DNA of 54,245 nt from a virus. Below the pieces are notes generated by a model. That model made no database searches. It was not told where the DNA came from and saw nothing but the letters and a program-made list of their open reading frames with translations. Positions within the stretch are counted from its first letter, which is position 1. The number at the start of each line of letters is the position of its first letter. Location: IMG/VR virus record IMGVR_UViG_3300009034_000049, positions 1-54,245 of that record, one strand, 5' to 3'. Below, piece after piece: positions 3,415 through 6,317 of the stretch. The position numbers and the translations under genes are program-made.

Positions 3415-3488
3415 GGGCGGTTAGTTCAGCGGCAGAATGGCTGTCTCCAAAACAGCAGACGAGGGTTCAAGTCCTTCACCGCCTGCCA
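3415..3488 (+). tRNA. tRNA-Trp(CCA)
   Basis: Cloverleaf with acceptor GGGCGGT/ACCGCCT, anticodon stem GCTGT/ACAGC and loop CTCCAAA, giving anticodon CCA. CCA end encoded. First tRNA of the array. Confidence 0.93.
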
Positions 3489-3492
3489 TAGC

Positions 3493-3580
3493 TGAGGGGT
3501 GACCGAGAGGACGAAGGTGCACCGCTGCTAACGGTGAGACCCGCAAGGGTTCGCGGGTTCGAATCCCGCCCCCTCAGCCA
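3493..3580 (+). tRNA. tRNA-Ser(GCT)
   Basis: Acceptor TGAGGGG/CCCCTCA, anticodon stem CACCG/CGGTG with loop CTGCTAA (GCT), long class II variable arm, discriminator G and encoded CCA, as expected for serine. Confidence 0.92.
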
Positions 3581-3599
3581 TACGGGAAGACCTATAGAC

Positions 3600-3677
3600 T
3601 GGGGCGTAGCTTAGCGGTACAAAAGCGCCGATCTTATAAGTCGGTGATCGCGGGTTCGAATCCCGCCGCCCCGACCA
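3600..3677 (+). tRNA. tRNA-Ile(TAT)
   Basis: Anticodon stem CCGAT/GTCGG with loop CTTATAA gives TAT, which reads ATA. The acceptor TGGGGCG/CGCCCCG opens with a T-G wobble; CCA is encoded. A TAT anticodon decodes ATA without the lysidine-modified CAT tRNA that most bacteria use. Confidence 0.85.
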
Positions 3678-3720
3678 GAGCACTTGGGAGATCGGGAGCC
3701 ATAACAGAACGTTAACATAG

Positions 3721-3794
3721 GCCGTCGCAGTCCGATGGACGGACGCCCGCCTTGTAAGCGGGAGGCGCAGGTTCGATTCCTGTCGGCGGCTCCA
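3721..3794 (+). tRNA. tRNA-Thr(TGT)
   Basis: Acceptor GCCGTCG/CGGCGGC, anticodon stem CCCGC/GCGGG, loop CTTGTAA (TGT), discriminator T and encoded CCA. Confidence 0.9.
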
Positions 3795-3797
3795 TGT

Positions 3798-3872
3798 GGG
3801 GGTGTGGCTCAATGGGAGAGCGCGGCGTTCGCAACGCCGAGGTTGCGGGTTCGACTCCCGCCGCCTCCACCA
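3798..3872 (+). tRNA. tRNA-Ala(CGC)
   Basis: Acceptor GGGGGTG/CGCCTCC has the G3-T70 pair that marks alanine. Anticodon stem CGGCG/CGCCG with loop TTCGCAA gives CGC. CCA encoded. Confidence 0.9.
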
Positions 3873-3877
3873 TACGC

Positions 3878-3952
3878 GGGGGGTTAGTGATAATGGGAGC
3901 ACACCTGCCTTGCAAGCAGGAAGTAGGAGTTCGACTCTCCTACCCTCCACCA
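3878..3952 (+). tRNA. tRNA-Ala(TGC)
   Basis: Acceptor GGGGGGT/ACCCTCC again has G3-T70. Anticodon stem CCTGC/GCAGG with loop CTTGCAA gives TGC. CCA encoded. Confidence 0.9.
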
Positions 3953-3955
3953 TGA

Positions 3956-4034
3956 GCCTCTGTAGCTCAGTTGGATCAAGAGCGCGTGACTTCGAATCAC
4001 GAGGTCGCAGGTTCGAGTCCTGTCAGGGGCTCCA
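3956..4034 (+). tRNA. tRNA-Arg(TCG)
   Basis: Acceptor GCCTCTG/CAGGGGC, anticodon stem CGTGA/TCACG, loop CTTCGAA (TCG), encoded CCA. Confidence 0.92.
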
Positions 4035-4037
4035 TAC

Positions 4038-4112
4038 TCTGGTATGGCGTAGTTGGTAGCGCGCGTGGCTGTTAACCACGAGGCGGGGGTTCGAGTCCTC
4101 CTACCGGAGCCA
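4038..4112 (+). tRNA. tRNA-Asn(GTT)
   Basis: Acceptor TCTGGTA/TACCGGA, anticodon stem CGTGG/CCACG, loop CTGTTAA (GTT), discriminator G, encoded CCA. Confidence 0.92.
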
Positions 4113-4115
4113 AGT

Positions 4116-4192
4116 GCGGGGTTAGCTCAACAAGGCAGAGCGGATGCTTTACACGCATTAGGTTGGGGGTTCGATTCCCTCACCCCGTACCA
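4116..4192 (+). tRNA. tRNA-Val(TAC)
   Basis: Acceptor GCGGGGT/ACCCCGT, anticodon stem GATGC/GCATT, loop TTTACAC (TAC), discriminator A, encoded CCA. Confidence 0.9.
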
Positions 4193-4195
4193 TAA

Positions 4196-4269
4196 GCCGC
4201 CATAGTCTAGTGGAAAGACGGAGCCTTGGTACGGCTCAGGCGGGAGTCCGATTCTCCCTGGCGGCTCCA
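4196..4269 (+). tRNA. tRNA-Thr(GGT)
   Basis: Acceptor GCCGCCA/TGGCGGC, anticodon stem GAGCC/GGCTC, loop TTGGTAC (GGT), encoded CCA. It abuts the next tRNA with no spacer. Confidence 0.9.
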
Positions 4270-4344
4270 GCCGCTGTAGGTCAACTGGCAGACCGCGCGG
4301 TTCGTACCCGCGAGATGATGGTTCAAGTCCGTCCGGCGGCTCCA
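4270..4344 (+). tRNA. tRNA-Thr(CGT)
   Basis: Acceptor GCCGCTG/CGGCGGC, anticodon stem CGCGG/CCGCG, loop TTCGTAC (CGT), encoded CCA. With TGT and GGT this is the third Thr isoacceptor. Confidence 0.9.
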
Positions 4345-4348
4345 GAGT

Positions 4349-4423
4349 GGGGCGGTAGCATAAGGGCAAGTGCGGCGGTCTGATATGCCGCTGATGGGGG
4401 TTCGAATCCCTCCCGCCCTACCA
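4349..4423 (+). tRNA. tRNA-Ile(GAT)
   Basis: Acceptor GGGGCGG/CCGCCCT, anticodon stem GCGGT/GCCGC, loop CTGATAT (GAT), discriminator A, encoded CCA. Confidence 0.88.
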
Positions 4424-4424
4424 T

Positions 4425-4501
4425 AGCAGTGTGGCGCAATTGGCAGACGCGCCTGGTTCAAAACCAGGATGATGTGAGTTCGAATCTCACCACTGCTACC
4501 A
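4425..4501 (+). tRNA. tRNA-Leu(CAA) lacking the long variable arm
   Basis: Acceptor AGCAGTG/CACTGCT and discriminator A fit leucine. The D-arm (TGGCGCAATTGGCAGACGCG) has the three-pair stem and large loop typical of bacterial tRNA-Leu. Anticodon stem CCTGG/CCAGG with loop TTCAAAA gives CAA. Only five bases (ATGAT) separate the anticodon stem from the T-stem, where leucine tRNAs normally carry a long arm. CCA encoded. Confidence 0.82.
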
Positions 4502-4505
4502 AAGA

Positions 4506-4582
4506 CGGAGTGTAGCGTAGTCAGGTAACGCACCTGGTTTGGGGCCAGGGGATCGGAGGTTCGAATCCTCCCGCTCCGACCA
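4506..4582 (+). tRNA. tRNA-Pro(TGG)
   Basis: Acceptor CGGAGTG/CGCTCCG begins with the C1-G72 pair typical of proline. Anticodon stem CCTGG/CCAGG, loop TTTGGGG (TGG), encoded CCA. Confidence 0.92.
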
Positions 4583-4585
4583 TAC

Positions 4586-4661
4586 GCCGCTGGGGTGTGA
4601 CGGTGTGCACGCGTCCCTGTCAAGGACGAGGCAGCGGGTTCAACTCCCGTCAGTGGCGCCA
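4586..4661 (+). tRNA. tRNA-Asp(GTC)
   Basis: Acceptor GCCGCTG/CAGTGGC, anticodon stem CGTCC/GGACG, loop CTGTCAA (GTC), discriminator G as expected for aspartate, encoded CCA. Confidence 0.92.
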
Positions 4662-4663
4662 GA

Positions 4664-4737
4664 GCGGGCGAAGTGTTGTGGTGGCACATCTGCCTTCCAA
4701 GCAGAGAGCGGGGGTTCGATTCCCCCCGCCCGCTCCA
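4664..4737 (+). tRNA. tRNA-Gly(TCC)
   Basis: Acceptor GCGGGCG/CGCCCGC, anticodon stem TCTGC/GCAGA, loop CTTCCAA (TCC), discriminator T as usual for glycine, encoded CCA. Confidence 0.92.
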
Positions 4738-4767
4738 TAGATGGAGAAAGATTTATCGGAGGTGACA

Positions 4768-5226
4768 ATGGGTGTCATCGATGGAAAAGTACACGGGAAG
4801 CGGGCGCGGGAGATGGCGATGACTGCTACGATTCTTAACGTCGATGGGCCTAAGGCGCACGCTTTTTGGCCAGATGGTATCACGTCGAGCCTCAGATGGT
4901 GCGTGCCGATCCCATCGAACTGGAGGAAAGGCACGGACATCTTGCTACACATGATGTGCGTGCAATTCAATACTCCTGGGAGCCCGACAGTCGTCTTGAG
5001 GAGTTCCATCCAAGCACGACCGGCGGGCGAAGAAGCGACTTGGAACATCGAGAATGGTGCTGTTTGCGACCAGGCATTGCCGCAGGGACTTCATACGCGC
5101 GTTACCCGAACCATTTCTGGCGCTGATGTCGAACACGGTGAGATCATCGACTGGGTTCTCGTACGGAGAGGGGGCGAGGTGGCGGATACCGTGAATGATG
5201 AAGTGTTTTGTAAGATGAGCGCCTAG
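4768..5226 (+). CDS. Virion-type beta-sandwich protein inside the tRNA array
   Basis: The protein has 152 residues. ATG 4768 is preferred over the in-frame ATG 4741 because GGAGGTG (4758-4764) is correctly spaced before it. The sequence has a beta-rich plan familiar from phage fibre and neck proteins: an aromatic HAFWPDG segment, VPIPSNWRKGTDILL, a thymidylate-rich-looking middle with few charges, then GEIIDWVLVRRGGEVADT near the end, similar to the GDxIxxxLxRxGxxxxDT motif of structural proteins. It sits between tRNA-Gly and tRNA-Ser and splits the array in two. A virion appendage or decoration role is inferred; no enzyme motif is seen. Confidence 0.65.
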   Translation: MGVIDGKVHGKRAREMAMTATILNVDGPKAHAFWPDGITSSLRWCVPIPSNWRKGTDILLHMMCVQFNTPGSPTVVLRSSIQARPAGEEATWNIENGAVCDQALPQGLHTRVTRTISGADVEHGEIIDWVLVRRGGEVADTVNDEVFCKMSA

Positions 5227-5253
5227 ATAGAATACACAGCAGGTAAGTAACGC

Positions 5254-5339
5254 TGTAGGGCGGCAATGGGAGTAGCAGCCGACTTCGAAACTCGGTAAGC
5301 GGAAACGCGATGGGGGTTCGACTCCCTCCCCTACAGCCA
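5254..5339 (+). tRNA. tRNA-Ser(CGA)
   Basis: Acceptor TGTAGGG/CCCTACA, loop TTCGAAA (CGA), long variable arm with GCG/CGC stem, discriminator G, encoded CCA. The anticodon stem CCGAC/CTCGG has a C-C mismatch next to the loop. Confidence 0.85.
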
Positions 5340-5340
5340 A

Positions 5341-5417
5341 GCCGAGGTAGCTCAGTCCGGTAGAGCGCGTGCCTGAAGAACACGAAGTCGTTGGTTCAAT
5401 TCCAACCCTCGGCGCCA
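5341..5417 (+). tRNA. tRNA-Phe(GAA)
   Basis: Acceptor GCCGAGG/CCTCGGC, anticodon loop CTGAAGA (GAA), encoded CCA. The anticodon stem CGTGC/ACACG has a C-A mismatch at its base, and the discriminator is G where bacterial Phe tRNAs usually have A. Confidence 0.8.
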
Positions 5418-5418
5418 T

Positions 5419-5495
5419 GTCCCGCTAGCTCAACGGAGAAGAGCGCGTCGCTTCTAACGACGAGGATCGGGGTTCGAGTCCTCGGCGGGGTACCA
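5419..5495 (+). tRNA. tRNA-Arg(TCT)
   Basis: Acceptor GTCCCGC/GCGGGGT, anticodon stem CGTCG/CGACG, loop CTTCTAA (TCT), encoded CCA. Confidence 0.9.
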
Positions 5496-5499
5496 AAGA

Positions 5500-5576
5500 G
5501 CCTCAGTAGCTCAGTGGAATAGAGCGCCTCCCTCCTAAGGAGGATGTCGCGGGTTCGAATCCCGCCTGGGGCTCCA
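5500..5576 (+). tRNA. tRNA-Arg(CCT)
   Basis: Acceptor GCCTCAG/CTGGGGC, anticodon stem CCTCC/GGAGG, loop CTCCTAA (CCT), encoded CCA. Confidence 0.9.
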
Positions 5577-5581
5577 TATGC

Positions 5582-5659
5582 GCCGGTGTAGCTCAGTCTG
5601 GCCAGAGCGACGGACTCTTAATCCGTACGTCGCAGGTTCGAATCCTGCCGCCGGTACCA
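5582..5659 (+). tRNA. tRNA-Lys(CTT)
   Basis: Acceptor GCCGGTG/CGCCGGT, anticodon stem ACGGA/TCCGT, loop CTCTTAA (CTT), discriminator A, encoded CCA. Confidence 0.9.
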
Positions 5660-5674
5660 TAGCAGGAGAGCGAT

Positions 5675-5830
5675 ATGGCGAGCCGCGTGAAGCTGACAGG
5701 CGCTGACGGAACGGTCGTGGAGCTTTCGCTTCGGGACACGGATTGGTACTGCCGTCAGTGCGGCAAATGGAATCCGAAGTACCGTCCAGCATGTCAGAAT
5801 TGCGGCAAGCGGTGGTACAAAGATGGATAG
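5675..5830 (+). CDS. RanBP2-type zinc-finger small protein
   Basis: The protein has 51 residues, starts at ATG 5675 behind GCAGGAGAG and lies between tRNA-Lys and tRNA-Tyr. An N-terminal beta segment (VKLTGADGTVVELSL) is followed by DWYCRQCGKWNPKYRPACQN and CGKRW. This matches the RanBP2-type finger pattern W-x-C-x2-C-x3-N-x6-C-x2-C-x3-W, with all four Cys and both Trp present. In eukaryotes such fingers bind ssRNA or ubiquitin; here RNA or protein binding is a guess. The position inside a tRNA transcript makes RNA binding attractive but unproven. A second protein of this type is at 45229. Confidence 0.75.
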   Translation: MASRVKLTGADGTVVELSLRDTDWYCRQCGKWNPKYRPACQNCGKRWYKDG

Positions 5831-5833
5831 CGT

Positions 5834-5923
5834 GTAGGGATGGCCGAGTGGTTGAAGGCGGCGGTCTGTAGAACCGCAGGGGTAACACCCCCCACGTGGG
5901 TTCAAATCCTACTCCCTACACCA
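5834..5923 (+). tRNA. tRNA-Tyr(GTA)
   Basis: Acceptor GTAGGGA/TCCCTAC, anticodon stem GCGGT/ACCGC, loop CTGTAGA (GTA), long variable arm as in bacterial Tyr tRNAs, discriminator A, encoded CCA. Confidence 0.93.
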
Positions 5924-5927
5924 TAGT

Positions 5928-6002
5928 TGGGACGTCGCCCAACGGCAGGGCAACAGCCTTTTAAGCTGGAGTGTGCAGGTTCGAATCCTGTCGTCCCAAC
6001 CA
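5928..6002 (+). tRNA. tRNA-Lys(TTT) on a Gln-like body
   Basis: Acceptor TGGGACG/CGTCCCA, anticodon stem CAGC/GCTG and loop CTTTTAA give TTT (Lys). The T1-A72 pair and the D-arm TCGCCCAACGGCAGGGC resemble bacterial tRNA-Gln more than tRNA-Lys. CCA encoded. Confidence 0.83.
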
Positions 6003-6003
6003 T

Positions 6004-6081
6004 AGGGGCGTGGCGGAATTTGGCATACGCGCACGGCTTAGACCCGTGATTTTGGAGGTTCGAGTCCTCTCGCCCCCACCA
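6004..6081 (+). tRNA. tRNA-Leu(TAG) lacking the long variable arm
   Basis: Acceptor AGGGGCG/CGCCCCC has an A1-C72 mismatch. The Leu-type D-arm TGGCGGAATTTGGCATACGC, discriminator A and loop CTTAGAC (TAG) indicate leucine. Only ATTTT lies between the anticodon stem and T-stem, so the class II arm is missing here too. CCA encoded. Confidence 0.8.
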
Positions 6082-6083
6082 GA

Positions 6084-6158
6084 GGCGGGTTGGTCTAGCG
6101 GTAAGGACGGGAGCCCTTCAAGCTCCAAGTAGGGGTTCGATTCCCCTACCCGCCTCCA
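6084..6158 (+). tRNA. tRNA-Glu(TTC) with C33
   Basis: Acceptor GGCGGGT/ACCCGCC, anticodon stem GGAGC/GCTCC, loop CCTTCAA giving TTC. Position 33 is C instead of the near-universal T. CCA encoded. Confidence 0.8.
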
Positions 6159-6161
6159 TAC

Positions 6162-6236
6162 ACCCTCGTGGCCCAACGGACAAGGCGTGTCCCTGCGGAG
6201 GACAAGATGCGGGTTCGACTCCCGCCGAGGGTACCA
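6162..6236 (+). tRNA. tRNA-Arg(GCG)
   Basis: Acceptor ACCCTCG/CGAGGGT, anticodon stem TGTCC/GGACA, loop CTGCGGA (GCG), encoded CCA. Most bacteria read CGC with an inosine-modified ACG anticodon; this one would not need that modification. Confidence 0.88.
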
Positions 6237-6242
6237 CAGCGC

Positions 6243-6317
6243 GGCCCCATAGTCTAGCGGCTAGGACGCCTGGTTCTCAGCCAGGAATCGCGGGTTCAAG
6301 TCCTGCTGGGGCCGCCA
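6243..6317 (+). tRNA. tRNA-Glu(CTC)
   Basis: Acceptor GGCCCCA/TGGGGCC, anticodon stem CCTGG/CCAGG, loop TTCTCAG (CTC), discriminator G, encoded CCA. Last tRNA of the array. Confidence 0.92.

What the first reader, a model, noticed from the sequence alone, without database searches (positions are those of the whole stretch)
4425..6081. Both tRNA-Leu genes lack the class II variable arm
Leu(CAA) at 4425 and Leu(TAG) at 6004 keep the leucine-type D-arm (three-pair stem, large loop, G26) and A73, but have only five bases between anticodon stem and T-stem. The Ser and Tyr tRNAs of the same array keep their long arms, so this is specific. In bacteria LeuRS largely depends on D-arm/T-arm tertiary contacts and A73, so charging may survive; otherwise they could be mischarged or escape nucleases that recognise the long arm.
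Basis: partly seen in the sequence, partly recalled or inferred. Interest (0 to 1): 0.62.

Follow-up and report, generated by a model that had tools for sequence, protein, structure and literature searches.

The report
Leucine tRNAs without their long arm
Many bacterial viruses, including this one, make leucine transfer RNAs that have lost the long side arm which reviews describe as universal outside animal mitochondria, while keeping every feature the leucine-charging enzyme is known to read, so the arm appears dispensable in nature and this can be tested directly in E. coli.

Summary
tRNA-Leu(CAA), 4425-4501, and tRNA-Leu(TAG), 6004-6081, have a 5-nt variable region (ATGAT, ATTTT), while Ser and Tyr of the same array keep 16-18 nt arms. 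It is not peculiar to this phage. In viral loci fetched with Arg, Trp and Asn tRNA baits and holding at least 4 tRNAs, 59 of 145 tRNA-Leu are short-armed, against 1 of 163 Ser/Tyr (p=7.5e-22); lengths are bimodal. Among Pseudomonadota, 0 of 248 non-seed genomes match the short pattern, while 58 of 60 match the same pattern with a long arm. Short-arm tRNA-Leu keep the E. coli LeuRS determinants: A73, A14, A15-U48, G18G19 and A20a occur together in 86% of those not selected for the D-arm, against 1% of other class I tRNAs. The core stays class II, so this is an amputated class II tRNA, not a converted class I tRNA. Best explanation: functional leucine acceptors charged by host LeuRS; the arm was lost repeatedly because bacterial LeuRS, unlike SerRS, does not need it. 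Charging was not shown here; cultured coliphages (4MG, Gostya9, Alf5) make the test easy. No published description was found in the library.

The parts
4425..4501 (+). short-arm tRNA-Leu(CAA), 77 nt with encoded CCA
4469..4473 (+). 5-nt variable region ATGAT in place of the class II arm; U48 at 4473
4434..4451 (+). leucine-type D-arm GCG-CAATTGGCAGA-CGC plus G26: A14, A15, G18G19, A20a, unpaired C13·A22
6004..6081 (+). short-arm tRNA-Leu(TAG), 78 nt with encoded CCA; A1·C72 mismatch
6049..6053 (+). 5-nt variable region ATTTT; U48 at 6053
6013..6031 (+). leucine-type D-arm GCG-GAATTTGGCATA-CGC plus G26: A14, A15, G18G19, A20a, unpaired G13·A22
3493..3580 (+). comparator: tRNA-Ser(GCT), 16-nt variable region with a 5-bp stem
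5254..5339 (+). comparator: tRNA-Ser(CGA), 16-nt variable region; weak D-stem
5834..5923 (+). comparator: tRNA-Tyr(GTA), 18-nt variable region
3415..6317 (+). array of 27 phage tRNA genes holding the two tRNA-Leu

Best explanation
The two genes encode working leucine tRNAs that lost the class II variable arm but kept the rest of the leucine identity set and the class II core. Host LeuRS charges them through A73 and the D-loop/T-loop elbow (A14, A15-U48, G18G19, A20a), and they read UUG and CUA-type codons of phage mRNA. Loss of the arm recurred in phage and mobile-array tRNA-Leu because bacterial LeuRS ignores the arm; tRNA-Ser cannot lose it because SerRS reads it, and the same is inferred for tRNA-Tyr and bacterial TyrRS. 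Shown here: structure, conservation of determinants, specificity to Leu, breadth, near-absence among sampled Pseudomonadota genomes, several independent changes on a weakly resolved tree. Inferred: charging, use in translation, and relaxed constraint (perhaps with selection for compact genes) as the cause.
For: Identity set (A73+A14+A15-U48+GG+A20a): 50/58 viral short-arm Leu not selected for D-arm, 104/108 of those selected for it, 83/88 long-arm Leu, 10/1339 other class I, 0/124 Ser, 0/43 Tyr. Stems are intact (97-99% standard pairs in acceptor, anticodon and T-stems) with many pair types, and T8-A14 and T54-A58 are kept. The D-stem sequence varies (TGGCG, TAGCC, TATCC, TACGC) while the determinants stay. 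U48 in 125/126 of 5-nt loops and 13·22 unpaired, unlike class I. Leu 59/145 short against Ser+Tyr 1/163, with bimodal lengths. E. coli LeuRS determinants and dispensability of the arm in vitro: PMC9976931; SerRS reliance on the arm: PMC7373986. Two relatives of this phage (MCP 69-71% identical) also carry short-arm Leu(TAG) and Leu(CAA), with a different D-stem. The phage uses UUG for 16% and CUA for 6% of its Leu codons.
Against: No aminoacylation, tRNA sequencing or host identity is available for this phage. Leu(TAG) has an A1·C72 mismatch. A position-profile comparison without the anticodon ranks the window's Leu(CAA) nearer to Pro (48.9) than Leu (43.8), probably because its anticodon stem equals that of the neighbouring tRNA-Pro, and assigns only 23 of 58 non-selected short-arm Leu to the Leu profile. 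The tree has only 62 columns and is poorly resolved. If the arm were simply useless, the rarity of its loss in chromosomes needs another reason (competition, accuracy), which is untested.
Confidence: 0.76

Rival explanations
1. Adaptive escape: loss of the arm protects phage tRNA-Leu from host nucleases, toxins or modifying effectors that recognise class II arms or host tRNA-Leu, so the short form is selected during infection.
For: Phage tRNAs are known to evade tRNA-targeting defences (PMC10264068; PMC11555353). Short arms are strongly concentrated in phage and mobile tRNA arrays, against 0 of 248 sampled non-seed Pseudomonadota genomes. Multiple changes on the tree fit recurrent selection.
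Against: No bacterial effector that reads the tRNA-Leu arm was identified here. 18 viral loci carry both long- and short-arm Leu, and Leu(TAA) mostly keeps the arm. The papers on evasion looked at here do not mention the arm of tRNA-Leu.
Confidence: 0.13
2. Class I tRNAs whose anticodon mutated to a leucine anticodon, then acquired leucine determinants or are charged with another amino acid.
For: Window Leu(CAA) shares its anticodon stem with the adjacent tRNA-Pro; 35 of 58 non-selected short-arm Leu match a non-Leu isotype profile best. Some short-arm Leu have D-stems unlike the usual bacterial tRNA-Leu, such as TAGCC.
Against: Short-arm Leu of all D-stem types keep A15-U48 with A20a, unpaired 13·22 and A73; the full set is in 1% of other class I tRNAs. 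G46 is frequent in class I (632/784) and less so in short-arm Leu (38/126). Chance acquisition of all of these in so many genes is unlikely.
Confidence: 0.07
3. Non-coding decoys or decaying genes that no longer act in translation.
For: Leu(TAG) has an A1·C72 mismatch; its folding energy does not exceed that of shuffles (z -0.10).
Against: Stems and tertiary pairs are as intact as in long-arm Leu across 166 genes; a closely matching tRNA-Leu is retained in many T5-like phages.
Confidence: 0.04

Closest known systems
Bacterial class II tRNA-Leu (E. coli type)
   Same: anticodon, A73, A14, A15-U48, G18G19, A20a, three-pair D-stem, unpaired 13·22
   Different: variable region 4-7 nt instead of 10 or more; no arm
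Animal mitochondrial tRNA-Leu
   Same: leucine tRNA without a long arm; A73 and A14 determinants (PMC9976931)
   Different: human mitochondrial tRNA-Leu(UUR) has the class I core triple (G13-C22):G46; these keep an unpaired 13·22 and mostly lack G46
E. coli tRNA-Leu deletion variants made in vitro (Larkin et al. 2002, as cited in PMC9976931)
   Same: arm removed, A73 and elbow kept; leucylated by E. coli LeuRS
   Different: laboratory constructs that also lack the anticodon arm; the present ones are natural whole tRNA genes
Noncanonical natural tRNAs reviewed in PMC7609411 (tRNA-Sec, allo-tRNA, tRNA-Pyl)
   Same: natural departures from the standard tRNA classes
   Different: those have altered acceptor/T lengths or anticodon stems; here only the variable arm is missing

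Membership tests
Canonical class II tRNA-Leu | leucine anticodon (YAA or NAG) | tested here: met
   CAA and TAG
Canonical class II tRNA-Leu | A73 discriminator | tested here: met
   both
Canonical class II tRNA-Leu | A15-U48, G18G19 and A20a | tested here: met
   both
Canonical class II tRNA-Leu | three-pair D-stem with unpaired 13·22 | tested here: met
   C13·A22 and G13·A22
Canonical class II tRNA-Leu | variable arm of 10 nt or more | tested here: not met
   5 nt in both
Canonical class II tRNA-Leu | aminoacylation with leucine by LeuRS | not testable with these tools
   needs an in vitro or in vivo assay
Class I tRNA | variable region of 4-5 nt | tested here: met
   5 nt
Class I tRNA | paired 13-22 with four-pair D-stem | tested here: not met
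Class I tRNA | G15-C48 Levitt pair (commonest form) | tested here: not met
   A15-U48 in both; A15-U48 also occurs in 34% of other class I
Animal mitochondrial tRNA-Leu | class I core with 13-22 pair and G46 triple | tested here: not met
Allo-tRNA | 8/4 or 9/3 acceptor/T domain and long variable arm | tested here: not met
   7/5 acceptor/T domain, 5-nt variable region

The most novel reading that the evidence does not exclude
Short-arm tRNA-Leu is an adaptive, recurrently selected form: phages and mobile tRNA arrays shed the class II arm to make leucine tRNAs that host tRNA-targeting defences or regulators do not recognise but LeuRS still charges.
Probability: 0.14. Interest if true: 0.82.

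Novelty: new variant of a known kind. Interest (0 to 1): 0.62.

Why it matters
[quoted passage not shown] About four in ten phage tRNA-Leu sampled here break that rule. They form a natural experiment on which synthetases need the arm, agree in nature with what in vitro work on LeuRS suggested, and offer compact leucine tRNAs for tRNA engineering. They also raise a clear question: why do chromosomes keep an arm that phages can discard?

Tried and rejected
The first pattern found nothing because it was one base short; corrected. The Flavobacteriia hits at first looked like core chromosomal genes; the class- and family-wide searches showed mostly long-arm Leu(TAG) and short ones in only 3 of 40 genomes, so they look accessory. 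T5 itself was expected to have the short form but has an 85-nt tRNA-Leu with a 12-nt variable region. Direct deletion from a near-identical long-arm gene could not be shown: T5 and T5-like Leu in the same slot differ along the whole gene. Conversion from class I was considered and judged unlikely from the conserved core. Mischarging by SerRS or AlaRS was rejected (A73; no G3-U70; known determinants). The host of the phage could not be identified. Larkin 2002 and the 2021 Anabaena trn operon paper are not held, so the first is cited through a review.

Full report
Observation. The window is a 54-kb fragment of an uncultivated tailed phage (major head protein, DNA polymerase, DnaB-like helicase, RecA and terminase found) with an array of 27 tRNA genes at 3415-6317. 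Leu(CAA) at 4425-4501 and Leu(TAG) at 6004-6081 have five bases between anticodon stem and T-stem; Ser(GCT), Ser(CGA) and Tyr(GTA) have 16, 16 and 18. Rfam scores both Leu genes well above cut-off, and the lowest-energy folds show no hidden arm. The two genes share only part of their sequence, so they are not recent copies of one another.

Breadth. To remove selection bias, viral loci were fetched with Arg-TCT, Trp-CCA and Asn-GTT tRNA baits. In the 152 loci with at least four tRNAs, 59 tRNA-Leu are short and 86 long; Ser 1 short and 114 long; Tyr 0 and 48 (Fisher p=7.5e-22). The single short 'Ser' has anticodon ACT. Lengths are bimodal, 4-7 and 10 or more, with one gene at 8. Loss depends on anticodon: CAA 21 short to 8 long, TAA 11 to 34 (p=9e-5).

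Cellular control. In 249 Pseudomonadota genomes the short pattern matched only the seed genome that had been chosen for it, while the same D-arm with a long arm matched 58 of 60. In class Bacteroidia the recovered Leu(TAG) genes are mostly long-arm, and only 3 of 40 genomes of the family of a Chryseobacterium seed, the seed included, carried the short form. Short-arm Leu in bacteria is therefore sporadic, in keeping with mobile arrays such as that on plasmid pNOS7524.01 of Nostoc PCC 7524. The pattern covers only the TGGCG D-arm type, so these are not complete counts.

Cultured phages. Short-arm tRNA-Leu occur in Mycobacterium phage ET08 (three), Gordonia Boopy and Fryberger, Streptomyces Moab, Salmonella PVPSE1, Cronobacter S13, Vibrio ValS_X1, Mesorhizobium Cp1R7A-A1, Synechococcus BUCT-ZZ01 and Escherichia TH18, and in coliphages 4MG (host MG1655), Gostya9 (host C600), T5_ev219 and Alf5 (host K-12; three genes). 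Where annotated, they are called simply tRNA-Leu. T5 carries an 85-nt Leu(UAG) with a 12-nt variable region beside tRNA-Ala; T5_ev219 and Gostya9 carry a 77-nt short-arm tRNA-Leu in the same slot.

What they keep. Standard positions were assigned to the tRNA genes of the viral loci (1,953 before removal of duplicates). The set A73, A14, A15-U48, G18G19, A20a is complete in 104/108 short-arm Leu selected by the pattern, 50/58 not selected by it, 83/88 long-arm Leu, but 10/1339 other class I, 0/124 Ser and 0/43 Tyr. The review PMC9976931 gives A73, A15-U48, G18G19 and A20a as E. coli LeuRS determinants, and A14 for A. aeolicus and mitochondrial LeuRS. A73 and U48 were not part of the search pattern. 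D-stems range over many sequences, so the determinants are being conserved rather than the D-arm as a whole. Positions 13 and 22 stay unpaired in 95% or more, and only 38/126 five-base loops have G46 against 632/784 in class I. The molecule is thus a class II core with a class I-length loop, unlike human mitochondrial tRNA-Leu(UUR) with its (G13-C22):G46 triple.

Origin. On a 62-column tree of 187 tRNA-Leu without anticodon and variable region, the short label needs 32 changes (shuffled mean 62), at least 9 of them forced by well-supported branches. This suggests repeated change in a clustered trait; resolution is poor and the direction of each change was not tested. Two relatives of the window phage, with major head proteins 69-71% identical, also have short-arm Leu(TAG) and Leu(CAA) but with a TAGCC D-stem, and a third has three short and one long.

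Mechanism. Established knowledge: E. coli LeuRS does not use the arm or the anticodon; variants without the arm are leucylated provided A73 and the D/T-loop contacts remain (PMC9976931, citing Larkin 2002, Asahara 1998 and Tocchini-Valentini 2000). SerRS uses the arm (PMC7373986). This predicts what is seen: Leu can lose the arm, Ser cannot. That Tyr keeps it is put down to bacterial TyrRS, from general knowledge. Charging by host LeuRS is therefore the best explanation, not yet shown. Why phages lose the arm and chromosomes do not is open: relaxed demand on accuracy and economy of sequence are the simplest reasons, escape from tRNA-targeting defences the more interesting one. Eighteen viral loci carry both forms, which fits gene-by-gene loss better than a phage-wide escape.

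Novelty. Ten text searches of the library and targeted reading found no description of short-arm phage tRNA-Leu; subscription papers are missing, so prior mention cannot be excluded. The genes themselves are in public records, unremarked in the records seen here.

Noticed in passing
L270:1700-1790; L275, L338, L341: Streptomyces and related actinobacteria carry lone short-arm Leu(TAA) genes, in L270 next to a DNA methyltransferase-like ORF. A second UUA-reading tRNA could bypass the bldA control of UUA codons (bldA from memory).
   Followed up: partly
viral loci: Loss of the arm depends on anticodon: CAA mostly short, TAA mostly long; unexplained.
   Followed up: partly
4425-4582: Leu(CAA) and the adjacent Pro(TGG) share the same anticodon stem CCTGG/CCAGG, possibly by recombination between neighbours.
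   Followed up: no
5254-5339: tRNA-Ser(CGA) has a weak D-stem and scores below the Rfam cut-off (25.6 bits).
   Followed up: no
5675-5830: 51-aa ORF with two CxxC pairs (zinc-ribbon-like) inside the tRNA array; no Pfam match.
   Followed up: partly
4741-5226: 161-aa ORF inside the tRNA array with no PHROGs or Pfam match.
   Followed up: partly
3415-6317: The array has no tRNA for Met, Cys, His or Gln in this fragment; related phages with longer contigs have Met, His and Gln in theirs.
   Followed up: no
L397:441-518: A tRNA-Tyr(GTA) call with a 4-nt variable region in a related phage; possible rare short-arm Tyr or a mis-call.
   Followed up: no
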